Source: Kordia jejudonensis (GTDB lineage Bacteria; Bacteroidota; Bacteroidia; Flavobacteriales; Flavobacteriaceae). Taken from it: a DNA stretch of 64,000 nucleotides. Positions 44,203 through 64,000 of the stretch are shown here, in pieces. A program made the position numbers and the translations under genes. The notes under the pieces are model-generated. The model made no database searches. It was not told where the DNA came from and saw nothing but the letters and a program-made list of their open reading frames with translations. The stretch covers positions 1 through 64,000 of the forward strand of contig NZ_LBMG01000030.1 of assembly GCF_001005315.1 (NCBI RefSeq). The letters run 5' to 3'. Each line of letters begins with the position of its first letter. Position 1 is the stretch's first letter.

Positions 44203-44895
44203 ATGAGCGGAATTTTAAATTCTTCGATTGGAAGAAAGTTTGCGATGGCACTTTCGGCACTCTTCCTAATGGTTTTTATCCTACAACACTTTGCAATCAA
44301 TATTCTTTCTGTGTTTAGTCCAGATGCTTTCAATGAAGCATCACACTTTATGGGAACGTTTTGGGCAGTACAATACCTATTGCAGCCAGTTTTAATTTTG
44401 GGAGTCATCTTTCACTTCGTGATGGGATTCGTTCTTGAAATAAAAAACAACAATGCAAGAAAAGTGAGTTATGCCAAAAACAATGGAAGCGCAAACTCTT
44501 CTTGGATGAGTAGAAATATGATTTGGAGTGGAGGTTTTATCTTGATCTTCATCGTCATACACATGATTGACTTTTGGGTACATGAAATGAATGTAAAATA
44601 CATTGCAGGCGATATGACAGGATTAATCAATCCAGCAGATCCAGGAAGTGGATTTAGATATTATGAAGAATTGGTAGTAAAATTTGAGCCAATTTGGAGA
44701 GTTGCTTTGTACTGTGTAGGATTTGTCTTTTTGGCATTACATTTATTACATGGTTTTGGTTCAGCATTCCAATCCATTGGAGCAAACAACAAATACACAA
44801 AAGCATTACAAGGTATAAGTAAAGTATATTCTATCGGAATTCCAGCAGGATTTATTTTCATTGCATTATATCACCATTTCACAGGAACACATTAA
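44203..44895 (+). CDS. sdhC: Succinate dehydrogenase cytochrome b558 subunit
   Basis: This 230-residue membrane subunit has five predicted helices. Conserved histidines for two heme b groups are in LQHFAINILS, VIFHFVMGF, IVIHMIDFWVH and ALHLLHGFGSAFQ. This is the single-membrane-subunit, diheme type (type B) of succinate:menaquinone reductase found in Bacteroidota and Bacillus. It anchors SdhA and SdhB on the cytoplasmic face and passes electrons from succinate to menaquinone. It is the first gene of sdhCAB, 18 bp before sdhA, behind a canonical promoter. The N-terminal motif SSIGRKFAMALSALFLMVF fits family members. Confidence 0.94.
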   Translation: MSGILNSSIGRKFAMALSALFLMVFILQHFAINILSVFSPDAFNEASHFMGTFWAVQYLLQPVLILGVIFHFVMGFVLEIKNNNARKVSYAKNNGSANSSWMSRNMIWSGGFILIFIVIHMIDFWVHEMNVKYIAGDMTGLINPADPGSGFRYYEELVVKFEPIWRVALYCVGFVFLALHLLHGFGSAFQSIGANNKYTKALQGISKVYSIGIPAGFIFIALYHHFTGTH

Positions 44896-44913
44896 AAAAT
44901 ACTTATCAAAACT

Positions 44914-48733: not shown

Positions 48734-48757
48734 ATAAAATCAAGAAAAAATAAAGAT

Positions 48758-48787
48758 CGAATATCGTAATAGGTATTCGCTTTTTTT
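48758..48787 (+). terminator. Rho-independent terminator
   Basis: CGAATATC (48758-48765) pairs with GGTATTCG (48772-48779) with one wobble around a 6-nt loop, followed by CTTTTTTTG. It separates the peptidase from the next regulatory region. Confidence 0.8.
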
Positions 48788-48810
48788 GTTTCATAACATC
48801 ACAAAGCGGT

Positions 48811-48876
48811 TTAGAACATTATAGAAAACGTTCAGAACATTTAAGAAACTGTCAAGTGCTTTTCGGTATATATTTG
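48811..48876 (+). promoter_or_regulatory. Putative LytTR operator plus -7 box for the FG-GAP T9SS gene
   Basis: Two AGAACATT boxes at 48813-48820 and 48834-48841 are exactly 21 bp apart, in direct repeat. A TATATTTG -7 element (48869-48876) follows 27 bp after the second box. No -33 TTG is seen, so activation by a bound protein is plausible. The same arrangement occurs upstream of 53289. The 9-bp direct repeat with 12-13-bp spacer known for LytTR proteins gives the same 21-bp period. Confidence 0.6.
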
Positions 48877-48915
48877 TCGTGCTAACCTACAGTAAACACT
48901 CAAATCTTAACTACA

Positions 48916-50241
48916 ATGAAGCAAAAATTACTTTTTCTATCGTGTGTGCTTTGCACATACATACTCACAGCACAAGCTGTATTTCCTGATACATTCGAAT
49001 TTCGAGGAATAAACTCCAATGCGCCCGATGTGGGCGCAGTACCAGCTCCAGGACCGAATCCTGCGGGTTTAGATGTAGCCGTTTTGCCAACATTAACTGG
49101 AAGACTCAGCGCACCAGTATTGGTCGATTTAGATGGTGATGGTGATTTGGACATGGTTTCTGGCGCACAAGCTGCGGAAGGAAAATTATTTTACTATGAA
49201 AACACAGGTTCTGCTACGGCTCCAAACTGGGTGCAAACAGCACAGCCAGCATTAGACGCCGTTGCCATTGCTCCAGGAGGAAATAATGAAACAAAAGGTC
49301 AATTTGTAGACATCGATGATGATGGAGATTTTGATTTATTCCTTGCGACTAAAAATGATATAAATCAATTTAACTTTAATGATATTCATTACTATGAAAA
49401 TACGGGAACCGCTACCGTACCGAATTTTGTAGAAACGACCATTCCTGGGATTTTGAATCAGAATATAGCAAACTTTCCAGGTCTCGGATTTGTCGATTTA
49501 GATGACGATGATGATTTAGATATGGTAGGTATCGGAAGTGATTCTATATCCTATCTTGAAAATACAGGAACTAAATTAGTGCCAATGTATGAACGTAGAT
49601 TGCATTTAGACAATCCTTGGGATATGAACACAGGTACAGGAGTATTGGATCGTAACTGGCCACACGGCGACATATTGGTAACAATGCCTAGTTTTGAAGA
49701 TGTAGATCGTGATGGCGATTATGACTTAATTGTGGGAACTGATACAGGAATTGTACGTTGGGTAGAAAATATCGGTTCGCCAACAGCACCAGACTTCGGA
49801 ACATATGCGTATCAAAATATGCCAGGAGATTTAGAAACATTCGATTTTGGACAATTTGCAACAGTTAGTTTTGGAGATGTAAATAGTGATGGAGTTTTAG
49901 ATGCTATCTTAGGATCGTTTAGCCCTGGATATTTTGCATGGTTTGAAGGTGTATTGACAACGCCATTAAGTATTGAAGAAGAAAACGTTGCTGTAAAAGT
50001 ACAGGTAAGTCCAAATCCTGTAAGTGATTTGTTAACGATACAATTTGAAAACAATCAAATCAATAAAACAAACATAACGATGTATACCATTACAGGACAA
50101 AAGGTATATGAAAGTAACAAACTCGTTCAGAGTGATAGAAGTGTAAAAATTGATGTGTCAAAATTAACATCAGGATTGTACTTTTTGCAGATAAAAAATG
50201 ACGGAAATGAAACCATCGTGAAAAAAATTACCGTTCAGTAA
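48916..50241 (+). CDS. Secreted FG-GAP/VCBS-repeat protein with T9SS sorting domain
   Basis: This 441-residue exported protein has a signal peptide ending about residue 20. FG-GAP/VCBS-type calcium-binding strands repeat through the middle (VLVDLDGDGDLDMVSGAQ, VDIDDDGDFDLFLAT, VDLDDDDDLDMVGIGSD, EDVDRDGDYDLIVGTDTG, GDVNSDGVLDAILGS). They form a propeller-like fold. The last about 85 residues are a type A T9SS sorting domain (VSPNPVSDLLTI, SGLYFLQIKNDGN, KKITVQ). It is presumably surface-bound or released. Its promoter region shares direct repeats with the gene at 53289, and the TPR kinase/LytTR pair lies between the two, so all four genes may form one regulatory unit. Confidence 0.88.
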   Translation: MKQKLLFLSCVLCTYILTAQAVFPDTFEFRGINSNAPDVGAVPAPGPNPAGLDVAVLPTLTGRLSAPVLVDLDGDGDLDMVSGAQAAEGKLFYYENTGSATAPNWVQTAQPALDAVAIAPGGNNETKGQFVDIDDDGDFDLFLATKNDINQFNFNDIHYYENTGTATVPNFVETTIPGILNQNIANFPGLGFVDLDDDDDLDMVGIGSDSISYLENTGTKLVPMYERRLHLDNPWDMNTGTGVLDRNWPHGDILVTMPSFEDVDRDGDYDLIVGTDTGIVRWVENIGSPTAPDFGTYAYQNMPGDLETFDFGQFATVSFGDVNSDGVLDAILGSFSPGYFAWFEGVLTTPLSIEEENVAVKVQVSPNPVSDLLTIQFENNQINKTNITMYTITGQKVYESNKLVQSDRSVKIDVSKLTSGLYFLQIKNDGNETIVKKITVQ

Positions 50242-50267
50242 GTATAACATATATACTGAGTACTACT

Positions 50268-50301
50268 TTAAGGAGACACTTTTAAAAAGCTGTCTCCTTA
50301 A
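50268..50301. terminator. Stem-loop after the FG-GAP gene
   Basis: TTAAGGAGACA (50268-50278) pairs perfectly with TGTCTCCTTAA (50291-50301) around a 12-nt loop. It has no T run, so its strength is uncertain. Confidence 0.6.
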
Positions 50302-50357
50302 CATATTTAAAAACATGTGTATTTTTGTGTAACCAAACGAACCTTTAACCTGTCTTT

Positions 50358-52406
50358 ATGAATTTCAAATCACTAAAATTCAGTCTTTCATTTTTGATGT
50401 TATTATGTGTTATTAGTGTAAAAGCACAAACCACTGAAATTCAAAAAGAATATGACAGTATTGCTGCAATACTTGAAAAAACAAAGCAAAAAGACAGTAT
50501 TGTATCCTTATTAAATCTTCAAAAAGAACTTGCAGAAAAAGCAAATGACAAGAAACGATTAGCTGAAACAATCTTTACCATTGCTTTACGAAGTAATTAT
50601 GGAGAAATGAAATCTATAGAAAACTTTGAAAAAGCAATTTTACTATATGAAGAACTAGATGATATTGCTGCACTGAGCAAAGCACATGTGGCTATAGGAA
50701 GAGCGTATCAATCGCAAAGTAAATACAATGAAGCATTTCAGGCTGTAAATAAAGCATTGGAATATGCAGAAATGGCTGAAGACACTGAACTCATCATCAA
50801 TGCATACTCTTTTCGATCAAATGTATATGGAAACTTTTCACAAGTTGACAATGCCATCAAAGACTTAAACAAAGCACAAAAATTAGCATTACAATACAAA
50901 GATGGAGAGAAGTTATTACCTATTCTTCAAGCAAAAAGCTTTCTATATTACTCAAAAGGATATTATAAAGAAGGAATAGCCGCTGTTAAAGAAATGATTG
51001 CTTATTTTGATCAAAAAAATAACAAGCGAAGTGTTGTTGTATGGCGAAATAACTTAGGGATGATTTATGCAAGTTGTAACTGTACTTCGTTAGATGAGCA
51101 AAAGAACAATATGCATGCTTCCATAGCATTATCAGACAGTATTAATTTTAATTATGGAAAATCGTATGCTTCAGTACATATGGCAAGAGCTTTAATGAAA
51201 CAGAAAAAGTTTGATAGTGCATATACATATCTTTCTACTGCAAAAGAAGGTTTACCAAAAAAAATAAATCCTAGCTTTTTAGGATACTTATATCAAACAA
51301 CTGGTGATTATTGGGGAAACCTTGGAAACAAACGAAAAACAATTCAAGAATTTGAAAAAGCATTCAAAATTTGGGACAAGCTCAATAAACTAAAAGATAA
51401 ACAATATGTTTCGCAACATTTAGCGAGTTTGTATCAAGATTTAAATAATGATAAAAAGGCGTTCTTCTATCTGGAAAACTACACCACGACAAAAGATTCT
51501 TTAGTAAATAAAACTAAAATTGAAAAAGAAAAAGAATTAGAACTTACGTATACTTTTGAAAAGCAACAATACAGAGACAGTATCCAAAATGCCGAAGCGC
51601 TAGATATCATGGCGTTAGAACAACAAAATGAAATTCAACGTGAGCAACACATACAACAAATTCTTTTAGGATTATTCTTGGCAGCATTAGCGCTTGGCGG
51701 ATTTGCCTATTACGCATACCAACGAAAAAAGAAAACCTCTAAACTATTAGACGAGAAAAATAAAATCATAGAAAAAGCATTACAAGAAAAACAACTTTTA
51801 CTAAAAGAAGTACATCACAGAGTTAAAAATAATTTCCAAATTGTATCAAGTTTGCTTGAATTACAAACGAAAGGTATTGAAGATGAAAAAGCACTGAGTT
51901 TGGCAAATGAAGGAAAAAACAGAGTCAAATCGATGGCGTTAATTCATCAAAAACTCTATCAAAATGAAACAGGGTTGATTGATTTTGACGAATACATCAA
52001 CGTATTGGTAAAAGAACTATCATACATGTATGCTTCTGAGAAAAAAGTACAAACGAATATCCATACAGAGAACATGCAATTTGATATCGATACGGCAATT
52101 CCATTAGGGTTAATTGTGAATGAATTGATTACAAATGCGTACAAATATGCGTTTGATGCTACCAAAGAAAATCAACTAAACATTTCGATCAACAAAGTCA
52201 ATGAAGAAGAATACAAACTCGTTGTAGCCGACAATGGAAAAGGAATTGATGATACAATCGATTTGGCGAAAGTGAAAAGTTTAGGATTGCGTTTGGTAAA
52301 ACGACTGACGAAACAATTGCAAGGAAAATTTACACTAAATAACAGTGATGGCGCTTCATTTGAAATTACCTTTAAAGACACACAACGAAGAGCATTATTA
52401 GACTAA
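50358..52406 (+). CDS. TPR-containing sensor histidine kinase (HisKA_2 type)
   Basis: The protein has 682 residues with a signal peptide ending about residue 24. A periplasmic TPR solenoid follows (about 30-400; KAHVAIGRAYQSQSKYNEAFQAVNKALEYAE-type units). One membrane helix (about 435-455; ILLGLFLAALALGG) and a short coiled linker lead to a HisKA_2 domain with EVHHRVKNNFQIVSSLLELQ. The HWE-type ATPase (IVNELITNAYKYAFD, DNGKGID, SLGLRLVKRLTK) completes it. Extracytoplasmic TPRs probably bind a protein or peptide. It is 7 bp from its response regulator gene. It lies between two T9SS genes with matching promoter repeats. Confidence 0.92.
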   Translation: MNFKSLKFSLSFLMLLCVISVKAQTTEIQKEYDSIAAILEKTKQKDSIVSLLNLQKELAEKANDKKRLAETIFTIALRSNYGEMKSIENFEKAILLYEELDDIAALSKAHVAIGRAYQSQSKYNEAFQAVNKALEYAEMAEDTELIINAYSFRSNVYGNFSQVDNAIKDLNKAQKLALQYKDGEKLLPILQAKSFLYYSKGYYKEGIAAVKEMIAYFDQKNNKRSVVVWRNNLGMIYASCNCTSLDEQKNNMHASIALSDSINFNYGKSYASVHMARALMKQKKFDSAYTYLSTAKEGLPKKINPSFLGYLYQTTGDYWGNLGNKRKTIQEFEKAFKIWDKLNKLKDKQYVSQHLASLYQDLNNDKKAFFYLENYTTTKDSLVNKTKIEKEKELELTYTFEKQQYRDSIQNAEALDIMALEQQNEIQREQHIQQILLGLFLAALALGGFAYYAYQRKKKTSKLLDEKNKIIEKALQEKQLLLKEVHHRVKNNFQIVSSLLELQTKGIEDEKALSLANEGKNRVKSMALIHQKLYQNETGLIDFDEYINVLVKELSYMYASEKKVQTNIHTENMQFDIDTAIPLGLIVNELITNAYKYAFDATKENQLNISINKVNEEEYKLVVADNGKGIDDTIDLAKVKSLGLRLVKRLTKQLQGKFTLNNSDGASFEITFKDTQRRALLD

Positions 52407-52413
52407 TCAAGCT

Positions 52414-53136
52414 ATGAGTAAAGTAAAAATATTAGTAGTTGAAGACGAAATTATCATTGCCGATCACATATGTGATACACTTGACGATTTAGGATATGAA
52501 GCGTTAGAACCTGTAATCAATTACACAGAAGCCATAGAAGCGATAGAAGCTGAAAAACCTGATTTGGCAATCTTAGACATTCAACTTTCTGGACGAAAAA
52601 CAGGAATTGATATCGCAGAAAAAATCCGAAAAGAATACGATTTCCCATTTATATTTCTAACCTCAAACTCTGATCCACTAACGGTTTCGGAAGCCAAAAA
52701 AGTAATGCCACCAGCGTATTTGGTCAAACCGTTTACCAAAGATGAACTCTACTCTTCTATAGAAATTGCACTCTACAACTATTCCAAACGTGTCGGAGAA
52801 GTCAATGAAGAAGAACTCATCATCAAAGATGCATTTTTCATCAAAGAAAAAAACGTATTTATCAAGTTGAAATTTGAAGACATTCTATTCATCAAAAGCG
52901 AACATGTATACGCGGAAATTCAACTAAAAAACAATCAAAAACATGTCATTCGTGGGAATTTAAACAAAATCATTACGAAGCTCAATCAAAAATTTGTACG
53001 TGTACATCGCAGTTACATTGTCAACTTAGAATACTTAGAACAAATAGATCAAAATACCATCGTAATTAACAAACAAGCCATTCCTATTGGTAAAAAATAC
53101 AAGGAAGAACTATTAAGCAAAATCAATTTGTTATAA
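52414..53136 (+). CDS. LytTR response regulator (partner of the TPR kinase)
   Basis: This 240-residue regulator has a receiver domain with the acidic pair in VVEDE, phospho-acceptor Asp55 (LAILDIQLSG), Thr in LTSN and Lys in LVKPFT. A LytTR domain follows (about 140-240; FVRVHRSYIVNLEYLEQ, IPIGKKYKEELLSK). It is the second gene of the operon with the kinase at 50358. It is the best candidate to bind the AGAACATT direct repeats before the T9SS genes at 48916 and 53289, because those repeats have the spacing of LytTR dimers and flank this operon. That link is an inference from position and geometry. Confidence 0.92.
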   Translation: MSKVKILVVEDEIIIADHICDTLDDLGYEALEPVINYTEAIEAIEAEKPDLAILDIQLSGRKTGIDIAEKIRKEYDFPFIFLTSNSDPLTVSEAKKVMPPAYLVKPFTKDELYSSIEIALYNYSKRVGEVNEEELIIKDAFFIKEKNVFIKLKFEDILFIKSEHVYAEIQLKNNQKHVIRGNLNKIITKLNQKFVRVHRSYIVNLEYLEQIDQNTIVINKQAIPIGKKYKEELLSKINLL

Positions 53137-53197
53137 ACAGCAGCTATCTTTTTCCAAGCTACCTATAAAATTAAATAAGCGCATTTAAATAGTACAT

Positions 53198-53262
53198 TCA
53201 GAACATTAAGTAAGCAGTTCAGAACATTTGTAAGAAACATGACAAGTAGTTGAATACCTTTA
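53198..53262 (+). promoter_or_regulatory. Putative LytTR operator plus -7 box for the second T9SS gene
   Basis: AGAACATT at 53200-53207 and 53221-53228 again lie 21 bp apart in direct repeat. TACCTTTA (53255-53262), a -7-like box, begins 26 bp after the second. The flank AAGAAAC-TG-CAAGT is also shared with the site at 48811-48876. Confidence 0.6.
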
Positions 53263-53288
53263 TAGTCTTAACCTAAATCTTACATGTT

Positions 53289-54047
53289 ATGACAAAAAAA
53301 ATACTCGCTTTTGTGATGCTTATAAGTGCATCATTATTTTTAAATGCACAATGTGGACCTTCTTTCAGTGACAATTCAAATTTTGATGCTGCAGGCAACT
53401 CAACAGGAATCTCTTTTACTACAGATGGTACTTGTAGCGGAATATTAACAAGCATCACATTCAACTCAGGTTTCTCTGTCATAGCAGCAAGTCCTGATAA
53501 TATGATTGGTCAAGCTATCGTACGTTTGTATGAAGGCGACGGATTGGGAGGAACTGTATTAGGTACATTAAATATTGCTGACATAGGCGCTAGTACTACT
53601 TTTGACTTTTCTGCATTGATGATTTCTATGAATACTTCTTCACAATACACAATTATAGTATCCGATTTTACACTGCCAACCTTAACAGGACGAGGATTTA
53701 ATGGCCCTTTTTCTACAAATTACACAGGTGGAGTACGATACAGAAATGGAGTTGCGCAAATTGGAGAACACTTGGCTTTCTCTGTTAATATTGATGATTC
53801 TACACTAAGCGTAACTGATGTGGATACAGCTGAAATGAAGTTACGCGTCTATCCAAATCCTGCTACAAATAGTATTCAGTTAACAGCTTTGCAAAAAACA
53901 GAAAACTATACAATTTTGGATATCTCTGGAAAAAAAGTTGTGGAAGGAATTGTAAACGAAAATGAACCAATTTATATTAAACAATTAACCAAAGGAATCT
54001 ATTTCATCCAACTAGAAAAAAGAGTACTAAAGTTTATTAAAAAGTAG
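53289..54047 (+). CDS. Secreted protein with T9SS sorting domain
   Basis: The product is 252 residues with a signal peptide ending about residue 20 (FLNA/Q). The mature N-terminal part is a beta-rich region (SGILTSITFNSGFSVIAA, IVRLYEGDGLGGTVLG, TSSQYTIIVSDFTLPTLTGRG) of the kind seen in surface proteins that bind through strand loops. No family is recognised. The C-terminal about 75 residues are a type A T9SS sorting domain (LRVYPNPATNSIQL, KGIYFIQLEKRVLKFIKK). Its promoter repeats match those of the gene at 48916. A strong terminator follows 49 bp after the stop. Confidence 0.82.
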   Translation: MTKKILAFVMLISASLFLNAQCGPSFSDNSNFDAAGNSTGISFTTDGTCSGILTSITFNSGFSVIAASPDNMIGQAIVRLYEGDGLGGTVLGTLNIADIGASTTFDFSALMISMNTSSQYTIIVSDFTLPTLTGRGFNGPFSTNYTGGVRYRNGVAQIGEHLAFSVNIDDSTLSVTDVDTAEMKLRVYPNPATNSIQLTALQKTENYTILDISGKKVVEGIVNENEPIYIKQLTKGIYFIQLEKRVLKFIKK

Positions 54048-54095
54048 ATTTGACAACGGTAATTGTTAAACTTTTCTTAGGATGAAATACTAGCG

Positions 54096-54127
54096 AACGC
54101 AAAGCTATTTGTTTTGCGTTTTTTTTT
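54096..54127 (+). terminator. Rho-independent terminator
   Basis: AACGCAAA (54096-54103) pairs with TTTGCGTT (54113-54120) around a 9-nt loop, followed by a long T run. Confidence 0.88.
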
Positions 54128-54160
54128 GTTTCTTGGCGAGATATTTCTCAGAATACCATC

Positions 54161-55936
54161 ATGCAGAACCCAATAACTTTTTACACAGCACAAAAAGCCA
54201 AATTTGAAGCCGAATTAAAAGTACAACGACGAAAACTAAACCAATCTAGTTTCTTGCGTTTGCTCGTTTTTTTAAGCATTGCTTTCGCGATATATCTCTT
54301 ATTTGGACAATGGCACTATGTAATATTGGCGTCCATAGTTGGTATGGGAATCTTTCTGTTTTTAGTCTTTCGTCATTCAGATTTAGTCTATCAAAGCAAC
54401 AAACTAAAAGCATTAATACAATGCAATCAGCTTGAAATAGATGTCATCAATGGCGATTTGTCAAAACTACCAACAGGCGAGGAATTTCTAGACGCTTCAC
54501 ACGAATTTAGTTACGATATTGATCTCTTTGGAAATGCTTCTTTCTTTCAATATCTCAACAGAGCAACCACACGCGAAGGAAAAAACAAATTGGCAGAATT
54601 ACTCGCAAGTAACGACATTTCAAACATTACTACACGACAAGAAGCCATCAAAGAATTAGGCGAAAAAGCAACGTGGCGACAACATTTTTCAGCCATTGCA
54701 TTGCTCATCAAAGTAGATGCAACTTCAAAAAGTATCACAACATGGTTACACGAATACAAAAGCTTCATTCCAAAAGCAGTTCGTTTCTTGCCAATGCTAT
54801 TTTCAGTACTTTCTATCACAATCATAACCTTATCGTTTTTAGAAATCATTCCGTTTTTATACGTGCTAATGTGGATAGGATTGGGCTTGGGAATTACAGG
54901 GAGATTTCTAAAAAGTATCAATCTATTATCGATCAATACGAACAAAGCAAAAGATACATTTCAACAATACGGACACTTGTTGCAACGTATTGAAGAAGAA
55001 ACATTTACAACAACACTGTTGAAAGAAAAACAACAAAACATTCACAGCGATGTACAAAAAGCATCTGCCTTAGTGCGCGAATTTTCAAAACGAATTGATG
55101 CATTGGACAATAGAAATAATATCTTAGTTGGAGTATTTTTAAATGGATTGTTATTGTGGGATATTTCAAAATCATATCACATCGAAACATGGATTGCAAA
55201 ACACAGTACAAAAGTGGCGCAATGGTTTGATGTCGTGACATTTTTTGATGCATATAACAGTTTAGGGAACTTTGCGTTCAATCATCCAGAATTTAATTAT
55301 CCAACGATTTCAGAAAACGCAACGCAAGTACTGAATGCTTCACAATTGGGACATCCATTATTGCGAACGACAAACAGAATTGACAACGATTTCAACATTG
55401 GGAACTCGGAATTTTTCATTGTTACAGGTGCAAATATGGCTGGAAAAAGTACCTTTTTACGAACGGTTTCGCTCGGAATTGTCATGTCTAATATTGGTTT
55501 GCCAATTTGTGCAGAAACCGCCGAATATTCGCCTATAAAACTTATTACAAGCATGCGTACGACGGATTCGTTGGCAGAAGGTGCTTCGTACTTCTTTTCA
55601 GAATTGCAACGCTTAAAAATGATCGTAGACAAAATTGAAGACGATACGTATTTTATCATTTTAGATGAAATTTTAAAAGGAACCAACAGTCATGACAAAG
55701 CGATGGGTTCAAAAAAGATCGTTCAAAAACTAGCTTCACAAAATGCTGCGGGAATCATTGCCACGCATGATTTAAGTTTGTGTGAATTGGAAAAAGAAAT
55801 TGACCAAGTAAAAAACTACTTCTTTGATGCCGAAATCATTAATGATGAACTCTTCTTTGGCTACTTACTCAAAAAAGGAATCTGCGCCAATATGAATGCT
55901 TCGTTCTTGTTGAAGAAAATGGAGATAGTGGAGTAG
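54161..55936 (+). CDS. Membrane-anchored MutS-like ATPase
   Basis: This 591-residue protein joins two pairs of predicted membrane helices (about 33-72 and about 210-250) and a middle MutS lever-like helical region. A C-terminal MutS ATPase domain has Walker A TGANMAGKSTFLRT (about 422-435), the MutS loop MRTTDSLAEGASYFFSELQ and Walker B FIILDEILKGTNS, with the ATHD H-loop. It lacks the mismatch-recognition domain I (no Phe-x-Glu), the connector of MutS, and the Smr domain of MutS2. It therefore is unlikely to be a normal mismatch repair protein. Membrane MutS-like ATPases of this layout occur in Bacteroidota, but their role is unknown to me. Confidence 0.88.
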   Translation: MQNPITFYTAQKAKFEAELKVQRRKLNQSSFLRLLVFLSIAFAIYLLFGQWHYVILASIVGMGIFLFLVFRHSDLVYQSNKLKALIQCNQLEIDVINGDLSKLPTGEEFLDASHEFSYDIDLFGNASFFQYLNRATTREGKNKLAELLASNDISNITTRQEAIKELGEKATWRQHFSAIALLIKVDATSKSITTWLHEYKSFIPKAVRFLPMLFSVLSITIITLSFLEIIPFLYVLMWIGLGLGITGRFLKSINLLSINTNKAKDTFQQYGHLLQRIEEETFTTTLLKEKQQNIHSDVQKASALVREFSKRIDALDNRNNILVGVFLNGLLLWDISKSYHIETWIAKHSTKVAQWFDVVTFFDAYNSLGNFAFNHPEFNYPTISENATQVLNASQLGHPLLRTTNRIDNDFNIGNSEFFIVTGANMAGKSTFLRTVSLGIVMSNIGLPICAETAEYSPIKLITSMRTTDSLAEGASYFFSELQRLKMIVDKIEDDTYFIILDEILKGTNSHDKAMGSKKIVQKLASQNAAGIIATHDLSLCELEKEIDQVKNYFFDAEIINDELFFGYLLKKGICANMNASFLLKKMEIVE

Positions 55937-57861: not shown

Positions 57862-58353
57862 ATGCGAGAAGAATATTTCAAAGAAATCATCACACATCAC
57901 AAAGATAAAATCTATCGAATTTGTCTTGCCTATCTCTACGAAAAAGAGTTGGTAGATGATTTATACCAAGAAGTGCTCATCAATGTTTGGAATGGACTCA
58001 AAAACTTTAAAGGAAACTCAAAATTAACAACGTGGTTGTATCGCGTTACGCTAAATACCACCATTACCTTTAATCGTCACGCCAAAAAACATGTGCAATT
58101 ATTCAATAGCGAGCTTCCCGATACATTTGAAGAAGTTTTAGATACAGAACGGCAAGCCAAAGAAAATCGAGTCAACAAACTCATGCAATGTGTGCAAAAA
58201 CTCAAAAAAGACGAACGCCTCATTATCAGTTTGGTCTTAGAAGAATTGAGTTACAAAGAAATTGCAGACATCATCGGAATAGAAGCCAACAATGTCGGTG
58301 TCCGAATCAACAGAATTAAAAAACGCCTTTTAAAAATATACAATAATGAATGA
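57862..58353 (+). CDS. ECF-type RNA polymerase sigma factor
   Basis: This 163-residue sigma-70 family protein has region 2 (DDLYQEVLINVWNGLKNFKGNSKLTTWLYRV) with the core-binding and -10 recognition helices. Region 4 (SYKEIADIIGIEANNVGVRINRIKKRLLKI) recognises the -35. It directs RNA polymerase to a set of stress or surface genes; targets are unknown. It is 8 bp overlapped by the membrane protein gene at 58346, so that protein probably controls its activity. There is no FecR-type regulator. Confidence 0.93.
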   Translation: MREEYFKEIITHHKDKIYRICLAYLYEKELVDDLYQEVLINVWNGLKNFKGNSKLTTWLYRVTLNTTITFNRHAKKHVQLFNSELPDTFEEVLDTERQAKENRVNKLMQCVQKLKKDERLIISLVLEELSYKEIADIIGIEANNVGVRINRIKKRLLKIYNNE

Positions 58354-58954
58354 TTTTAACGACATCCTAAACGACTGGAAATCGGTTTCTTCAACAGAAA
58401 TTGAAGTCAACAGCGAAAGTGACTCGTTGTTTGCAAAACTCAAAAAATTACAGCGAAAAATAGTCTTCGGAAACTTGTTCATGAGCATTTCATTTGCCGC
58501 AGTATTTGCCGTTTTCATTTGGTTATGGAACGCAAATTTGGGCAAAGAACGTTCGGATAACTTCTACATGGGTTTAACATTCATGTTTGTTTTATTGAGT
58601 ATTACCTTAGTCATGATGTGGTATCGTGTATTATTTTGGCGAACGCCGAATGATATCTCAGAAAATATGAAAGCCTTTGCGACAAAAATGTTGAAAAAAC
58701 TACGCTATTTTAAATGGATTACGAGCTTTTTTATGCCAACATATTTAGTTTTGTTAGCTGTCGGAATCACAATTTACTACCAAGATGTTTTGCAGGAAAC
58801 GAGTCTCACCATCAAACTTATTGCTTACGGAGCAACGTATGTATGGTTATTTGTAGTAGGTTTTATAATGGTGCGAAAAAAACGAAAAAAGAACAACAAA
58901 GACGTTGATCCTATCATTGAAAACCTAGAAGAAGTATTAGACACACTAGCCTAA
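58346..58954 (+). CDS. Multi-helix membrane protein, putative anti-sigma factor
   Basis: The product is 202 residues with a soluble N-terminal about 40 residues (MNDFNDILNDWKSVSSTE, LFAKLKKLQRK). Four predicted membrane helices follow (about 44-63, 74-94, 128-148 and 155-178) and the C-terminal tail is acidic and basic. Its ATG overlaps the 3' end of the sigma factor gene by 8 bp, so the two are translationally coupled. Position and the cytosolic N-terminus suggest it inhibits the sigma factor. No zinc-binding HxxxCxxC motif of the ZAS class is present, so the mode would be different. Assignment rests on context. Confidence 0.65.
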   Translation: MNDFNDILNDWKSVSSTEIEVNSESDSLFAKLKKLQRKIVFGNLFMSISFAAVFAVFIWLWNANLGKERSDNFYMGLTFMFVLLSITLVMMWYRVLFWRTPNDISENMKAFATKMLKKLRYFKWITSFFMPTYLVLLAVGITIYYQDVLQETSLTIKLIAYGATYVWLFVVGFIMVRKKRKKNNKDVDPIIENLEEVLDTLA

Positions 58955-59104: not shown

Positions 59105-59365
59105 TTATCTGTTACGTACTGGAGATGCTGGCTCTTTATCAATTGGAGTTGAAGTATCTACTCCATTACTACAAATACAAGATAACTCAAATGTATCTGT
59201 CGGGCAGTTTGTTGCTACAGGAAGTGATACTAAATCAGAATGTACATCTGAGTAATTTCCATAATTAGCATGATTAGAAGCTAAACCTCCGTTAACGAAT
59301 CTTCCGTTAATAATTGACACTGTACTTTTGTTTAATGCGATTTTACGTAAACTCTTTTTTTTCAT
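59105..59365 (-). CDS. Class I lanthipeptide-type precursor peptide 1 (86 aa)
   Basis: The product is 86 residues from ATG 59365; a longer frame starting 60 bp upstream is not credible. It begins MKKKSLRKIALNKS. Hydrophobic residues at 6, 9, 11, 16 and 19, Lys13 and Gly26-Gly27 match the other four peptides of this cluster without gaps. The core after the GG is long (59 residues) and contains three Cys and many Ser and Thr that could be dehydrated and cyclised. Leaders with L-x-L-x-K and a double-Gly site are typical of Flavobacteriia class I lanthipeptide precursors. The modification enzymes and ABC transporter are not in the window. No other homolog of this core is seen here. Confidence 0.75.
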   Translation of the reverse strand: MKKKSLRKIALNKSTVSIINGRFVNGGLASNHANYGNYSDVHSDLVSLPVATNCPTDTFELSCICSNGVDTSTPIDKEPASPVRNR

Positions 59366-59821
59366 AATGTTTGTTTTTGTGGTTAAACATGGTTCAAAGG
59401 AATCACAAAAAAATACACCAACCAAGACAAGCCTCTGAGCTTTTATAAAATGTCATCATGAAAAAAGAAGCATTATTTTTGATAAGAATTAAAACGTAAA
59501 TTTTCAACAATAATTAAGTTTAAAAAACTACAGATATAATTTTAAATATTTGATTTGCAGCTAATTATTTAAATTATTTTGTATAAATATTTTCTGATTG
59601 TATTCAAATTAAGAGATGACCTTTTATAAAACAGTAGGTTCGTTTTTTCAATACAGAAGTATCTTTTCAACTGCTATAAAAAAAGCAAGTACAGTTTCAA
59701 TTTTTGTGGGTGTAACAGCCTTCAAATGCGAATTAAATTTGAACTAATAATTTTTTGAATTACTTGGGTAACGTTTTTAAACTTCCTGTACTTTTAGGTA
59801 TAAACTTAAATTATTATAATT
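59366..59821. other. Divergent promoter region between peptides 1 and 2
   Basis: No gene is supported in this AT-rich gap between two divergent precursor genes. TACTTTTA before 59822, with a TTG 22 bp upstream, is the best -7/-33 candidate for peptide 2. TTCCTTTG on the minus strand upstream of 59365 is a one-mismatch -7 box for peptide 1. No common operator could be recognised by eye. Confidence 0.5.
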
Positions 59822-59998
59822 ATGAAAAAAAGAAGTCTAAAAAGTTTAGCACTGAACAAAAGAGCAATTTCTTCTCTTGAAACTACGGATCAGTCTAAAG
59901 GAGGAGCAAGTTACCCAACATTGAGAAGAACAGAATGTACTTGTGACACAATGTATTTTTGTGATACATGGGCATTATGTGATCCATATGAGCTATAG
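59822..59998 (+). CDS. Class I lanthipeptide-type precursor peptide 2 (58 aa)
   Basis: This is a 58-codon gene, ATG 59822 to TAG 59998. The leader begins MKKRSLKSLALNKR and has Leu6, Leu9, Leu11, Lys13, Ile16, Leu19 and Gly27-Gly28, identical in spacing to its neighbours. The 30-residue core has four Cys and several Thr (TECTCDTMYFCDTWALCDPY). It is divergent from peptide 1 and has its own terminator (60011-60032). The likely fate is export after cleavage behind GG; whether it is lanthionine-modified cannot be told without the enzyme genes. Confidence 0.78.
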   Translation: MKKRSLKSLALNKRAISSLETTDQSKGGASYPTLRRTECTCDTMYFCDTWALCDPYEL

Positions 59999-60010
59999 AA
60001 CTATATGATA

Positions 60011-60032
60011 AAACGAACTTCGGTTTGTTTTT
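60011..60032 (+). terminator. Terminator with UUCG loop
   Basis: AAACGAAC (60011-60018) pairs with GTTTGTTT (60023-60030, one wobble) around a TTCG tetraloop, ending in T-rich sequence, 13 bp after the stop of peptide 2. Confidence 0.75.
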
Positions 60033-60060
60033 AGTAAATATAATTCTGTAAAAAGACTTG

Positions 60061-60200
60061 AAAGAGACTATTTGAAAAGCTAAATTTTCGTCAAGCCAAT
60101 CTTGATTCGGTTTCTCATAATCATTGAAAATCAGTGTAATGAGATTCTGAATTGAATTCAAAATGACGCTTTTTTATACTTTTTAGATAGTCTCTTTTTT
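60061..60200. repeat. 140-bp inverted-repeat element
   Basis: The ends AAAGAGACTATTTGAAAAG (60061-60079) and CTTTTTAGATAGTCTCTTT (60179-60197) are imperfect inverted repeats. Inside lie CGTCAAGCCAATCTTGATTC and GAATTGAATTCAAAATGACG, a second inverted pair. A partial relative is at 37,021-37,114. It has no coding capacity and looks like a miniature mobile or structural repeat. Confidence 0.65.
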
Positions 60201-60324
60201 TGTAATATACATTTCTACACTTATTAAAATAGGAATCGAAAATTTTACCAAAACTGCTGCATAGCTTCATGACAGCGTAATTTTTAATTTATTATGCTTA
60301 ATTTTCCGCCAATAAGCAACCAAA

Positions 60325-61470
60325 ATGATACAACATACATCCAAACTTCCAAATGTAGGAACCACCATTTTTACGGTAATGAGTCAGTTAGCTGCCAAGG
60401 AAAACGCCATCAATCTTTCGCAAGGATTTCCTAATTTTCCTTCAGATCCAAAACTAATTGAAATGGTGCAGCAAGCTTTGCGTGAAAATTACAATCAATA
60501 CGCGCCAATGCCCGGCGCAATGATATTGCGGGAAGCCATTGCTGAAAAAATGGAGCATTTGTATCAAAAAAACTACAATCCAGCTACGGAAATTGTGGTT
60601 ACAGCTGGTGCAACACAAGCTATTTTTACCATTGTAAGCGCGTTTGTACGACCAACAGATGAAGTAATTATATTTACACCAGCCTACGATTGTTATGCGC
60701 CAGCTGTGGAAGCGCATGGTGGAAAAGTAGTGCCAATTCAGTTAAAAGGAAAAGAGTTTGCCGTCGATTGGAATGAAGTTCGAGCGAAAATAAACGACAA
60801 AACTAAGTTGATGATTATCAACACGCCACACAATCCAAGTGGAACAGTATTGTCGAAAGCAGATATGTTGGAACTTTCTTCAATTTTAGAAAATACAAAC
60901 ACTATTTTACTCAGTGACGAAGTATACGAACATATTATTTTTGACGGTGCACAACATCAAAGTGCGGCATTATTTCCGAAACTTGCCGAACGCGCGTTTA
61001 TCACAGCTTCTTTCGGGAAAACATTTCACAATACAGGTTGGAAAATGGGCTATTGTGTAGCGCCAAAAGAACTCATGGACGAATTTAAAAAAGTGCATCA
61101 ATTCAATGTATTTTCTGTAAATCATCCAATGCAAATTGGCATCGGGAAGTATCTCAAAAATCCTGCACATTATGAAGCACTTCCGAGTTTTTTTCAGCGA
61201 AAGCGAGATTACTTTTTAAATGCGATTAAAGATTCACGTTTTACATGGAAACCATCGCAAGGAACGTATTTTCAAGTGTTGTCTTATGAAGATATTACTG
61301 ACGAATTGGATACCGAATTTGCCAAACGCTTAACACGTGAACATAAAATTGCGTCCATTCCACTTTCTGTATTCAACACAAATAAAGAAGATCATAAATT
61401 GCTGCGTTTTTGCTTTGCCAAAACTGAAGAAACATTGCAACAAGCGGCTAAAATTTTGAATCAGATATAA
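60325..61470 (+). CDS. PLP-dependent aminotransferase (methionine/kynurenine-type)
   Basis: This 381-residue fold-type I aminotransferase has NLSQGFPNFPSDP near the start, YAPMPGAMILREAIA, and NTPHNPSGTV. The PLP Schiff-base Lys sits in SFGKTFHNTGWKMGY. LLSDEVYEHIIFDG carries the Asp that holds the pyridine nitrogen. Motifs fit the YbdL/kynurenine aminotransferase branch, which uses methionine or aromatic donors in 2-oxoacid salvage. It stands between the precursor peptide genes but has no visible link with peptide modification. A bidirectional terminator follows immediately after its stop. Confidence 0.9.
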   Translation: MIQHTSKLPNVGTTIFTVMSQLAAKENAINLSQGFPNFPSDPKLIEMVQQALRENYNQYAPMPGAMILREAIAEKMEHLYQKNYNPATEIVVTAGATQAIFTIVSAFVRPTDEVIIFTPAYDCYAPAVEAHGGKVVPIQLKGKEFAVDWNEVRAKINDKTKLMIINTPHNPSGTVLSKADMLELSSILENTNTILLSDEVYEHIIFDGAQHQSAALFPKLAERAFITASFGKTFHNTGWKMGYCVAPKELMDEFKKVHQFNVFSVNHPMQIGIGKYLKNPAHYEALPSFFQRKRDYFLNAIKDSRFTWKPSQGTYFQVLSYEDITDELDTEFAKRLTREHKIASIPLSVFNTNKEDHKLLRFCFAKTEETLQQAAKILNQI

Positions 61471-61498
61471 AAAAAGCTTCTCGTTTGAGAAGCCTTTC
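61471..61498. terminator. Bidirectional terminator
   Basis: GCTTCTC (61476-61482) pairs with GAGAAGC (61487-61493) around a GTTT loop. On the plus strand CTTTCT follows; on the minus strand TTTTTTT follows, so it serves both the aminotransferase and peptide 3. Confidence 0.82.
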
Positions 61499-61516
61499 TA
61501 ATCTGATAATTCACTA

Positions 61517-61702
61517 CTATTTTGGAGCTGTACAAATTCCTGGCGATCCAGTATTGTAGCACCATCTGTTGTATGTAAAATTGCAAAACTCTGGTTCTAC
61601 AGAAATTACAGTTGTGTAACCACCTTTGATTGCAGTATTTGCCTGAAGATCAGTTACTTTTTCTTTTGATAATTGTAGGTTTTTTAAATTCTTTTTTTTC
61701 AT
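61517..61702 (-). CDS. Class I lanthipeptide-type precursor peptide 3 (61 aa)
   Basis: The product is 61 residues starting MKKKNLKNLQLSKEK, with Leu6, Leu9, Leu11, Lys13, Val16, Leu19 and Gly27-Gly28. The core of 33 residues (FCNFTYNRWCYNTGSPGICT) has three Cys and several Ser/Thr, a composition usual for cyclised peptides. It lies 33 bp after peptide 4 on the same strand, so the two are probably one transcript, ending at the terminator at 61471-61498. Function is inferred from leader similarity only. Confidence 0.78.
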   Translation of the reverse strand: MKKKNLKNLQLSKEKVTDLQANTAIKGGYTTVISVEPEFCNFTYNRWCYNTGSPGICTAPK

Positions 61703-61735
61703 GGTTTTAAAATTTTTAGGTTATTAATGTTAAGA

Positions 61736-61894
61736 TTAGTGTGCGTGGCAAGAAGTTGGACACATCGAATCGAATGTTAAACAACCAGTCCAAGCGCGTG
61801 TGCCACCACCAACAATTCTATCTTGTTTTGCTACATCTAAATTTGCAATTGATGCTTTTGCTAATTGTAACGATTTTACTTTTTGAGTTTTCAT
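61736..61894 (-). CDS. Class I lanthipeptide-type precursor peptide 4 (52 aa)
   Basis: This is a 52-codon gene read from ATG 61894 to TAA 61736. The leader MKTQKVKSLQLAKAS keeps Val6, Leu9, Leu11, Lys13, Ile16 and Leu19, then GGG at 29-31. The 21-residue core (TRAWTGCLTFDSMCPTSC) has three Cys, four Thr and two Ser, the strongest lanthionine-like composition of the set. It is the first gene of a probable peptide 4-peptide 3 transcript. Its shortness and exact match to the leader pattern make it a real precursor rather than a chance frame. Confidence 0.76.
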   Translation of the reverse strand: MKTQKVKSLQLAKASIANLDVAKQDRIVGGGTRAWTGCLTFDSMCPTSCHAH

Positions 61895-62029
61895 AATTGA
61901 ATAATTTAATTTTTAGTTGATCTCAATATATGATTCGTATGCGCTGAAAAAAAGGAAACGTAACTCAAGAGAATTAAAAATTGCGAGATTTGAGGTGCGA
62001 TTTTAGTAGCTAATTTTAGTGACACACAT

Positions 62030-62062
62030 CAAAAAAAAATCGGAAGCTTGGCTCCCGATTTT
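62030..62062 (-). terminator. Terminator of peptide 5
   Basis: AAAATCGGAAGC (62036-62047) pairs with GCTCCCGATTTT (62051-62062) around a 3-nt loop, with a G-U wobble on the minus strand and a nine-base T run after it. It begins 25 bp past the stop of the gene at 62088. Confidence 0.78.
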
Positions 62063-62087
62063 GTACATGTGAATTGATAAGCGTGTA

Positions 62088-62243
62088 TTAAAAGCAAACA
62101 TAGTTTCCGCAATGCGTTCCAAGTCCGCTTTCTTCTCCGTCAAGCGTACGTGTTCCGCCTTTTAACTGAGAAGCTGTTATTTGATTAATTTTAGCAATGG
62201 TCGATTTTTTTAAATACACTTTTTGTAAAGTTTTCACTTTCAT
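62088..62243 (-). CDS. Class I lanthipeptide-type precursor peptide 5 (51 aa)
   Basis: The product is 51 residues from ATG 62243; a longer frame adds an unrelated 26-residue N-terminus and is not favoured. The leader MKVKTLQKVYLKKST keeps Leu6, Val9, Leu11, Lys13, Ile16 and Ile19, then Gly29-Gly30. The 21-residue core has two Cys, three Thr and one Ser (TRTLDGEESGLGTHCGNYVC). It lies between the regulator gene 62327 and peptide 4, all on the minus strand. A far inverted repeat sits in the gap to the regulator. Shared leaders with different cores suggest one set of enzymes serves all five. Confidence 0.75.
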   Translation of the reverse strand: MKVKTLQKVYLKKSTIAKINQITASQLKGGTRTLDGEESGLGTHCGNYVCF

Positions 62244-62253
62244 ACGTATTGGT

Positions 62254-62322
62254 TTTGAGTTGTAATTTATACAAGTAATATAGGCTATTAATGTAATTAG
62301 TACGCAGCGTATACAACTCAAA
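62254..62322. promoter_or_regulatory. Inverted repeat between the regulator and peptide 5
   Basis: TTTGAGTTGTA (62254-62264) and TACAACTCAAA (62312-62322) are perfect 11-bp inverted repeats 47 bp apart, filling the gap between the regulator stop and the peptide 5 start. They could be sites for a dimeric regulator or a transcript structure. Confidence 0.4.
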
Positions 62323-62326
62323 TTAG

Positions 62327-64000
62327 TTAATTTGAGGCAACGTTTTTATCTGTATCTTCAAGATTTTTAATATAATACGAAGGATATAATTTTGTGTAAG
62401 CTTTAAAATATTTTGTGAACGAATTTGTACTCTTATAGCCAATTTCTTCCGCAATATGCTTGATAGAATAGTTGCGAAATTTTGAATCTTCCTTCAAACG
62501 TTTCAATACATATTCAATGCGTAATTCGTTGATGTATTCGTAGAACTTTTTATGCTTATAAGTGCTTATGATTTTGGATAAATACGTTGTATTGGTCTTT
62601 ACTTTTTTAGCCATATTTTGCAAATTGCAATTGCTGTTTAAAAAATATAACGACTGTTCTAATTTTTCCAAACCATCCAAAATAGCATTGACTTTTTTAT
62701 CTTTTATGACAATATCCGTTTTCTTTTCAGGAGCTTTTTCTGCTTCAATTTGCGATACTAATTTTTGAAAAATGATCTTGTTTTGTTTTCGAATTTTTAT
62801 GAATTTAAACAAAAAGAAACCACACAATCCAACAACAAAAACACTAAAGAGAATTACGTAGATTAAACGGTTTTCTAACTTCGAAGTTAAGGAAGAAAGA
62901 TCGTCATTTTCTTTGCGAACCGTTTCGTATAAATCTTTAATGACTTCTATGTTTTTAACTTCATTGTGTTTGTTGAGTTGTACATATTTTTCGGTGTAAA
63001 ATAAATGTTGCTCATTGTTTTGCAATTGTTCAAACGAATTTGCCAATGCGCGAAAGGTTCCTAACAATTCTGGCGGATTGAAACTATTTTGATCGTTGGA
63101 ATTTTTAGTCGCAACAATAGTTTCAACCTTTTTCAAAAAGGCAATAGCTTTGTCATAATCCTTCAATTCGTAATATGATTTTCCGATGTAATAATAAATT
63201 TCGGTCAATCGTTTTTGGTTGTTAAGTCCTTTTGTAATTTTTTCTGCTTTTTGCAAATAATCAACCGCGATTTCAAAATCTCCCTTGATGAAATAGGCAA
63301 TTCCAATATCGATATAAAAATAACTTACGCCTTCGTCATCATTGATTGCCAAACTTTTTTGTAAGCCAATTTTTGAATAGTGTAAGGTAGAATCAGGTTG
63401 TTGCAAACGAAGAAATGTACCGCCGATTCCCATGTATGAATTTATGGCAACTAATTCGTCTTTAAACGTATGTTTTTCTGCCAAAAGCGCATTGTTTTTG
63501 TAAATTTCTAACGCTTCTTCGTAAAATTCCATGCGTCTTTTTACTTTGGCAATATTGGCTTTTGCACGCACAATGATTTCAATTTCTTTTGATGAATTTC
63601 CAATGTCGAGCGCTTTTAAATAATTTTCCAATGCACCTTTATTATCGCCCAAATACACAATGGCATTTCCTTTAATGAGCAATGGAAAAGCTTTCAAAAT
63701 ATCGTCTTTTAGCGCATCGGCAGTTAAAATTGCAGCATCTGCATGTTGAATGGCGAGTGAATAGTTTCCTTCAATATTGGCTATACGACTTTTTTGAATG
63801 TAAGCATCGTATACACCACGTTTATCATTATTATTTTTACTTTTTTCGAGTAAAATTTCAGCATACTTATTGGCTAAGTCAGGATTGGAATATTTGTGTT
63901 GATTGATAAATACGACAATGTCTTCAGCAGAAGCATCTTCGGGCATTTCTTGTGCAAAAAGAGTTGAAGCAGTAAGCATGAAAAAAAATAAACTCCAAAA
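62327..64000 (-). CDS. TPR-AraC membrane transcriptional regulator (5' end outside window)
   Basis: At least 557 codons are present; the reading frame stays open past the window edge. The visible N-terminus (WSLFFFMLTASTLFAQ) is the end of a signal peptide that must start beyond 64000, and an internal ATG at 63979 is not the likely start. A periplasmic TPR solenoid follows, then one membrane helix (LIYVILFSVFVVGLCGFFLF), a coiled linker and a C-terminal AraC-type HTH (MAKKVKTNTTYLSKIIST, IAEEIGYKSTNSFTKYFKAYT). Such proteins sense extracellular peptides or proteins. It sits beside the precursor peptide genes and is a candidate regulator of them. Confidence 0.87.
   Translation of the reverse strand, partial: FWSLFFFMLTASTLFAQEMPEDASAEDIVVFINQHKYSNPDLANKYAEILLEKSKNNNDKRGVYDAYIQKSRIANIEGNYSLAIQHADAAILTADALKDDILKAFPLLIKGNAIVYLGDNKGALENYLKALDIGNSSKEIEIIVRAKANIAKVKRRMEFYEEALEIYKNNALLAEKHTFKDELVAINSYMGIGGTFLRLQQPDSTLHYSKIGLQKSLAINDDEGVSYFYIDIGIAYFIKGDFEIAVDYLQKAEKITKGLNNQKRLTEIYYYIGKSYYELKDYDKAIAFLKKVETIVATKNSNDQNSFNPPELLGTFRALANSFEQLQNNEQHLFYTEKYVQLNKHNEVKNIEVIKDLYETVRKENDDLSSLTSKLENRLIYVILFSVFVVGLCGFFLFKFIKIRKQNKIIFQKLVSQIEAEKAPEKKTDIVIKDKKVNAILDGLEKLEQSLYFLNSNCNLQNMAKKVKTNTTYLSKIISTYKHKKFYEYINELRIEYVLKRLKEDSKFRNYSIKHIAEEIGYKSTNSFTKYFKAYTKLYPSYYIKNLEDTDKNVASN

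What the first reader, a model, noticed from the sequence alone, without database searches (positions are those of the whole stretch)
59105..62243. Five orphan lanthipeptide-type precursors with one leader design and unrelated cores
Five small genes (59105-59365, 59822-59998, 61517-61702, 61736-61894, 62088-62243) encode peptides that align without gaps at positions 6, 9, 11, 13, 16 and 19 ([L/V]6, [L/I/V]9, L11, K13, [I/V]16, [L/I]19), followed by GG at 26-31. Their cores differ completely but are rich in Cys, Ser and Thr (two to four Cys each). This is the signature of a leader-guided peptide family in which one enzyme set acts on many cores. No LanB/LanC, cyclase or peptidase-ABC transporter lies in the window, so the enzymes must act in trans or lie beyond 64 kb. 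The three closest genes share one strand, two have their own promoter regions, and a TPR-AraC regulator flanks them. The mix of an ECF sigma factor, a membrane regulator and many substrate peptides suggests a natural-product or signalling system.
Basis: partly seen in the sequence, partly recalled or inferred. Interest (0 to 1): 0.88.

Follow-up and report, generated by a model that had tools for sequence, protein, structure and literature searches.

The report
Scattered Kordia peptides with paired regulators
Five small genes here belong to a set of well over a hundred look-alike peptide precursors scattered through a marine Kordia genome in which only one matching enzyme set was found, and one of them sits right behind a membrane regulator in an arrangement that repeats many times, which hints at a many-channel peptide signalling system.

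Summary
Observation confirmed. All five genes carry the Bacteroidota class I lanthipeptide leader (LxLxKx5L, then GG); with a profile that excludes them they are the five best of 1064 window frames. The genome (nearest named LanB records: Kordia) has at least 179 such frames in the stretches I fetched but one LanB, split, beside LanC, a C39 exporter and two precursors on another contig. Each of 11 genomes of the genus has one LanB and 128-150 leader matches, 150 being a cap; 295 sampled genomes of the order outside it have at most 5. Most likely one enzyme set acts in trans, like prochlorosins but class I. Kordia's precursor richness is already in print (PMC11118758).

Not found in print: 23 of 28 TPR-AraC membrane regulators have a leader peptide 65-125 bp downstream, against 6 of 328 other genes; the pairing recurs in Kordia algicida and Aquimarina. 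Window gene 62088-62243 is such a partner, paired in 11 of 11 genomes. I propose regulator-ligand modules. Ring chemistry, leader reading and sensing are unproven.

The parts
59105..59365 (-). P1, precursor peptide, 86 aa, leader ending at GG 26-27, 3 Cys in the core
   Evidence: orthologues in 2 of 10 other Kordia stretches, core 68% and leader 60% identical over the three
59822..59998 (+). P2, precursor peptide, 58 aa, GG 27-28, 4 Cys in the core
   Evidence: best of the window frames; orthologues not examined
61517..61702 (-). P3, precursor peptide, 61 aa, 3 Cys in the core
   Evidence: missing from the list (70 of 220 candidates unscored there), found; orthologues in 2 of 10 other Kordia stretches, core 83% and leader 70% identical
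61736..61894 (-). P4, precursor peptide, 52 aa, 3 Cys in the core, MKTQK group
   Evidence: Over the NF038153 cut-off; 22 members of the group in 11 of 11 genomes, core 57% and leader 70% identical
62088..62243 (-). P5, regulator-paired precursor, 51 aa, 2 Cys near the C-terminus, start codon 83 bp behind the stop of the TPR-AraC gene
   Evidence: Weakest leader of the five (E 0.013); pair present in 11 of 11 genomes at 79-93 bp; leader 62% and core 47% identical
62327..64000 (-). TPR-AraC regulator, cut by the window edge (full ORF to C142:64027): N-terminal TPR repeats, one transmembrane segment, C-terminal HTH_18
   Evidence: Pfam, ORF past the edge, hydropathy, structure model
62317..62336 (.). 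Inverted repeat CTCAAATTA-N2-TAATTTGAG overlapping the regulator's stop codon; possible operator or hairpin, function unknown
   Evidence: The repeat recurs at this place in 11 of 11 genomes; but inverted repeats at regulator ends are only slightly commoner than at other gene ends

Best explanation
The five genes encode RiPP precursors of the Bacteroidota class I lanthipeptide type. One machinery on another contig (split dehydratase LanB-N and LanB-C, cyclase LanC, C39-peptidase ABC exporter with HlyD partner) reads the shared LxLxKx5L leader in trans, dehydrates Ser/Thr, closes thioether rings with Cys and cuts after GG during export, so that one enzyme set serves well over a hundred dispersed, separately evolving cores. 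P5 belongs to a second, regulator-paired type: a one-component membrane regulator (TPR sensor outside, one transmembrane helix, AraC DNA-binding domain inside) with its peptide gene directly downstream; the exported peptide is probably sensed by the TPR domain, which then switches neighbouring precursor genes. Shown here: the genes, the common leader, one LanB per genome in this genus, conservation of cores, the regulator-peptide pairing. Inferred: that this LanB reads the dispersed leaders, ring formation, export, membrane topology, sensing.
For: Leader equals the published motif of Bacteroidota class I precursors with GG and C39 protease (PMC7268733 passages). One LanB locus with LanC, exporter, HlyD, TPR-AraC and two precursors with the same leader; positions aligned with NisB active-site residues kept (roles recalled). 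11 of 11 genomes: one LanB, 128-150 leader matches, among them three closed single-contig genomes. LanB and leader co-occur: 16 genomes have both, 2 LanB only, 1 leader only, 61 neither, of 80. 124 cores: Cys 12.0% against 0.78% background, none in leaders; 123 of 124 have Cys and Ser/Thr; 122 of 124 have at least as many Ser/Thr as Cys. Pairing 23 of 28 against 6 of 328, 31 of 40 in other genomes. Paired peptides share the leader.
Against: No chemistry was seen. Only 27 of 128 leader matches pass the curated cut-off and 1 of 5 in the window. The same kind of leader occurs in radical-SAM and graspetide precursors: 61736-61894 also matches TIGR04149 weakly, below its cut-off, and the genome has two grasp-with-spasm maturases and one radical SAM/SPASM protein. 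A second LanC sits among precursors without LanB. Ser/Thr placing around Cys is mixed: enriched at -3 to -5 but most at +2. Two LanB genomes (G020, G036) had no NF038153 match. Sensing: co-variation of P5 core and TPR domain is weak (partial Mantel p 0.036; partial correlation 0.15 once the leader is taken out), and the TPR fold is generic.
Confidence: 0.6

Rival explanations
1. The peptides are disulfide-rich or linear double-glycine peptides: the leader serves only the C39 exporter, and LanB acts only on the two precursors beside it.
For: One strong C39 exporter in the genome; leader motif and GG would fit export alone; Cys-rich cores also suit disulfides; Ser is hardly enriched (7.1 against 6.2%).
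Against: Thr is doubled in cores (12.3 against 6.5%); the number of Cys is odd in 65 of 124 cores; leader and LanB co-occur across genomes; the clustered precursors have the same leader.
Confidence: 0.18
2. Several enzyme sets share the precursors: part goes to LanB/LanC, part to the grasp-with-spasm systems, the radical SAM protein or the second LanC.
For: Two grasp-with-spasm maturases and one radical SAM/SPASM protein, one about 3 kb from a TPR-AraC/peptide pair on C145; LanC with a nucleotidyltransferase among four precursors on C160, a pair also noted in PMC11118758.
Against: Three SPASM proteins in all, none on the window's contig; no NF038153-only clade was tied to any of them here. Not tested: YcaO and other RiPP enzymes.
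Confidence: 0.17
3. The TPR-AraC genes only regulate the neighbouring precursor genes; the TPR part senses something else (envelope state, another ligand) and the paired peptide is simply the first target gene.
For: Regulators beside their targets are common; further precursors often follow in the same direction; weak co-variation.
Against: The first gene behind the regulator is a leader peptide of a recognisable, Cys-poorer type in 23 of 28 cases at 65-125 bp, and also in Aquimarina; TPR part less conserved than the DNA-binding part (0.69 against 0.86); Foldseek lists Rap and NprR peptide sensors among weaker matches.
Confidence: 0.45
4. A decaying or selfish gene family: most copies are duplicated leaders with drifting tails and no product.
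For: Very many copies; some lack a clear GG (2 of 126).
Against: Purifying selection on five groups of orthologous cores (pN/pS 0.14-0.53); 123 of 124 cores keep Cys and Ser/Thr.
Confidence: 0.05

Closest known systems
Bacteroidota class I lanthipeptides with LxLxKx5L leader and GG (PMC7268733, passages; pinensins and Pedobacter lusitanus peptides recalled or from references only)
   Same: Leader motif, GG, LanB/LanC and a C39 exporter in the genome
   Different: There the precursors lie in the cluster; here two do and at least 170 do not
Prochlorosins / SyncA (class II; one ProcM or SyncM for up to 29 and 79 precursors: PMC12328550 passage; PMC9872173 abstract start)
   Same: One enzyme set, many leaders of one design, diverse cores, precursors away from the enzyme genes
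   Different: Class I split LanB plus LanC instead of LanM; other leader family; more precursors; paired membrane regulators
Kordia RiPP richness as reported by TrRiPP (PMC11118758, section 7 whole and passages)
   Same: Up to 176 precursors on a Bacteroidota genome, Kordia named, LanC plus nucleotidyltransferase near precursors
   Different: The text I saw does not mention a single LanB for the set or the TPR-AraC pairing; figures and supplements were not seen
RNPP/Rap peptide sensors (TPR receptor encoded with its peptide)
   Same: TPR receptor gene directly followed by a small exported-peptide gene; Rap and NprR structures among the fold matches
   Different: RNPP proteins are cytoplasmic and read re-imported unmodified peptides (recalled); these have a transmembrane segment, an AraC domain and RiPP-type precursors

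Membership tests
Class I lanthipeptide precursor (Bacteroidota type) | LxLxKx5L leader followed by GG | tested here: met
   5 of 5 window genes with L/I/V allowed at the L positions; genome-wide 119 of 126 relaxed, 87 of 126 strict, 124 of 126 with GG
Class I lanthipeptide precursor (Bacteroidota type) | Curated family NF038153 cut-off | tested here: inconclusive
   1 of 5 over the cut-off, 4 of 5 below
Class I lanthipeptide precursor (Bacteroidota type) | LanB and LanC in the genome | tested here: met
   One split LanB, LanC beside it; WCYGD and CHG motifs in two LanC (roles recalled)
Class I lanthipeptide precursor (Bacteroidota type) | Encoded in a cluster with LanB | tested here: not met
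   LanB is on C143, the window on C142; hence I file the genes as class I-type precursors in trans, not as members of a classical cluster
Class I lanthipeptide precursor (Bacteroidota type) | Core with Cys and Ser/Thr | tested here: met
   123 of 124 cores
Class I lanthipeptide precursor (Bacteroidota type) | (Methyl)lanthionine rings in the product | not testable with these tools
   Needs mass spectrometry
Prochlorosin-like one-enzyme-many-substrates system | One synthetase, many precursors in one genome | tested here: met
   One PF04738 match, at least 179 leader frames; 11 of 11 genomes with one LanB
Prochlorosin-like one-enzyme-many-substrates system | LanM (class II) enzyme | tested here: not met
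   LanC-like proteins of 625 and 650 aa score 92.6 and 68.6 bits to TIGR03897, cut-off 304; works like it, is not a member
RNPP/Rap-type receptor-peptide pair | TPR receptor encoded directly with a peptide | tested here: met
   23 of 28; 31 of 40 elsewhere
RNPP/Rap-type receptor-peptide pair | Cytoplasmic receptor | tested here: not met
   One strong transmembrane segment in 27 of 28
RNPP/Rap-type receptor-peptide pair | Binds its cognate peptide | not testable with these tools
   Needs a binding assay

The most novel reading that the evidence does not exclude
Kordia and Aquimarina run a many-channel peptide signalling network: some ten to thirty membrane-spanning TPR-AraC one-component receptors per genome, most encoded with their own leader-bearing (possibly lanthionine-modified) pheromone, all matured and exported by one LanB/LanC/C39 machinery, each switching its own set of effector lanthipeptides.
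Probability: 0.33. Interest if true: 0.9.

Novelty: new variant of a known kind. Interest (0 to 1): 0.74.

Why it matters
If true, it is a class I counterpart of the prochlorosins with more substrates per enzyme set, which matters for enzyme promiscuity and peptide engineering. The regulator-peptide pairs give the open question of what such large peptide sets are for a testable handle, in culturable marine bacteria such as Kordia algicida.

Tried and rejected
Proximity of TPR-AraC genes to the leader list alone gave 9 of 30 within 1 kb (expected 1.76, binomial p 3.7e-5; at 5 kb 13 of 30 against 4.86); looking directly downstream told more, because that list misses most paired peptides. Co-variation of P5 core and TPR domain over 11 genomes is weak and is not used as support. 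Inverted repeats at the regulators' ends exceed shuffles (p 4e-5) but hardly other gene ends (p 0.01; 5 of 28 against 43 of 344 at score 9 or more), so I claim no regulator-specific hairpin. TTYATRAA near the stop is enriched (15 of 23 against 21 of 344), found again in 7 of 13 K. algicida but only 4 of 21 Aquimarina stretches; the motif was picked after looking. Radical SAM/SPASM as the main enzyme: three SPASM proteins, none on C142. ECF sigma factor: no link found. Ser/Thr spacing around Cys: mixed. My pattern for P5 found 0; a corrected one found 11. The 179 frames come from a profile built on 80 of the same peptides; 55 of the 179 were not. One search printed only part of its matches, so the peptides of the ten other genomes were not inspected one by one, apart from the stretches. 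One hit counted (L223) has GG but not the leader motif; two that the filter missed (L214, L221) look like leader peptides. The second fold library was not available.
Full report
OBSERVATION. The five ORFs exist as stated. Positions 6, 9, 11, 13, 16 and 19 agree in 5 of 5 by direct reading, and GG follows. NF038153 (class I lanthipeptide leader) matches 5 of 5, one above cut-off. With a profile of 76 leaders that leaves the window genes out, they are the five best of 1064 window frames; 20 shuffled windows gave nothing at E<0.01. The weakest, 62088-62243, has E 0.013.

GENOME CONTEXT. The window is C142:1-64000 of a 5.36 Mb assembly of 217 contigs. NF038153 gives 128 matches at E<=1, 27 of them over cut-off, with 150 of 220 candidates scored. 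Of the 128 peptides read out, 126 start with Met and look like precursors; 2 do not and were dropped. Of the 126, 124 have GG, 119 the relaxed and 87 the strict LxLxKx5L motif. They fall into 79 groups (the two rejects included). A local profile finds 179 frames at E<0.01 in the fetched stretches, 55 of them not, so 179 is a floor for the genome, give or take weak tail hits. Three more precursors and a second TPR-AraC gene follow just beyond the window.

ENZYMES. One PF04738 match exists. On C143 lie a C39-peptidase ABC exporter 43256-45463, HlyD 45465-46823, two precursors, TPR-AraC 47992-49704, Lant_dehydr_C 49975-50892, Lant_dehydr_N 50885-53140 and LanC 53148-54365. The nearest solved chains are a thiopeptide-type dehydratase (9g04) and NisB; the R...R.T, D, D and R positions aligned with NisB are kept (that they are catalytic is recalled). 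Other LanC-like genes: C160 beside a nucleotidyltransferase among precursors; C2 beside APH and HopA1 domains (class V-like, recalled); C156 and C146 in clusters that look like NRPS/PKS. SPASM: three proteins, two of them grasp-with-spasm maturases.

TAXON AND SPREAD. Of 20 named LanB loci, 8 are Kordia (87-97% identity); the rest are Lacinutrix, Leptobacterium, Psychroserpens, Aquimarina, an unnamed Flavobacteriaceae and an Aminicenantes MAG. The scan may leave out the window's own genome. In 80 genomes, own included, leaders (E<=0.01) occur in 17 and LanB in 18, both in 16. All 11 genomes of the genus have exactly one PF04738 match and 128-150 leader matches at E<=0.1, 150 being the scoring cap. 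Of 295 other genomes of the order, none of this genus among those with matches, 16 have any match at E<=0.001, at most 5 each; at most 28 candidates per genome were scored. In this sample the expansion is a trait of the genus.

CLUSTERS ELSEWHERE. In the 8 Kordia LanB loci the order LanC, LanB-N, LanB-C, TPR-AraC, precursors, HlyD, C39 is kept. In 6 Aquimarina loci TPR-AraC genes and precursors lie upstream of LanC and LanB, in 5 of the 6 with a precursor close behind a regulator in the listing.

CORES. In 124 cores Cys is 12.0%, Thr 12.3%, Ser 7.1%; in 410 long background frames 0.78, 6.5 and 6.2%; leaders have no Cys. Orthologous cores are under purifying selection (pN/pS 0.14-0.53). In three of five groups (P1, P3 and one group without a member in the window) the core is more conserved than the leader; in P4 and P5 it is less. 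P1 and P3 rest on three genomes each, counts pool all pairs, and P2 was not examined.

REGULATOR PAIRS. A search with the window TPR-AraC protein gives 52 matches, of which I took 30 (E<=3.6e-28, two pieces of one gene merged; list). By eye 24 of the 29 with sequence behind them are followed directly by a small leader peptide. A fixed filter (MK start, 45-115 aa, G-type site, 40-160 bp behind the stop) gives 23 of 28, at 65-125 bp; two of the 30 were not counted, one at a contig end and one with a GTG start that the script did not accept. The same filter gives 6 of 328 other genes of 250 aa or more, five of the six being other precursors. The regulator set was examined by eye before the filter was written. 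Of 30 search loci from 21 genomes, 10 show a paired peptide by eye (one at 246 bp, one overlapping the stop), all from LanB genomes, where 12 others do not; of 8 loci from LanB-negative genomes 5 could be read and none has one, and only two of the five are strong TPR-AraC matches. So the tie of the pairing to LanB is suggestive only. Leptobacterium has seven regulators head to tail. The 23 paired cores have 7.7% Cys and 16.0% Thr.

THE REGULATOR. A hydrophobic N-terminus is seen in 19 of 28 and one strong transmembrane segment in 27 of 28 (some starts are cut). The AlphaFold model (27 sequences, mean pLDDT 85.3, pTM 0.59) is a TPR superhelix, a long helix and a C-terminal helical domain where Pfam sees HTH_18. 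Foldseek lists LGN-type TPR structures first, Rap and NprR peptide sensors lower. The P5 pair is present in 11 of 11 genomes; TPR part 69%, DNA-binding part 86% identical on average. The outer position of the TPR part is inferred.

MECHANISM. Most likely the C143 machinery reads the common leader in trans; P1-P4 are effector-type peptides, P5 the partner of the regulator. What they act on is unknown; competition and species-level recognition are both open.

LITERATURE. PMC7268733: passages. PMC3091789: passages, one LanA/B/C cluster in K. algicida OT-1. PMC11118758: section 7 whole and passages; up to 176 precursors on a Bacteroidota genome, Kordia singled out. PMC12328550, PMC10352776, PMC10734526, PMC7477175: passages. 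PMC10352776 notes TPR-domain genes in two Bacteroidales RiPP clusters and cites pheromone binding by such domains, so the general idea is in print. PMC9872173: abstract start in a listing. My ten searches covered open-licence PMC text only; I did not find the single-LanB expansion or the TPR-AraC pairing there.

VERDICT. The precursor expansion is real, holds across the genus and is partly known. The regulator-peptide pairing is the newer part and the better experimental handle.

Noticed in passing
window 57862-58954: ECF sigma factor overlapping a 202-aa protein without a family match over cut-off; a similar protein lies upstream of the same aminotransferase in 5 of 10 other Kordia stretches.
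   Followed up: partly
G000:C2:2594-7522 (L042): APH-domain protein, HopA1-domain protein and LanC in a row, class V-like (recalled), behind a 478-aa Cys-containing protein without NCBIfam match.
   Followed up: partly
G000:C160:25245-27465 (L043): LanC and a nucleotidyltransferase among four precursors, no LanB; the same combination is noted for Kordia in PMC11118758.
   Followed up: partly
G000:C156:45343-47220 and C146:48731-50683: Two proteins of 625 and 650 aa with an N-terminal LanC-like domain beside very large ORFs that look like NRPS/PKS.
   Followed up: no
G000:C145 (L159:757-1833) and C163 (L160): Two grasp-with-spasm maturases, the first about 3 kb from a TPR-AraC/peptide pair.
   Followed up: partly
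L178 (C172) and L179 (C213): Two TPR-AraC genes are followed by subtilase-like genes (Pfam S8 tested for the one in L179; the one in L178 by resemblance), possible leader proteases.
   Followed up: partly
G346:C1:1054554-1066660: Seven TPR-AraC genes head to tail in Leptobacterium, one with an in-frame stop.
   Followed up: no
L126, L130, L132: Psychroserpens-type LanB loci carry 4-6 near-identical precursors and a second, distant LanC upstream.
   Followed up: no
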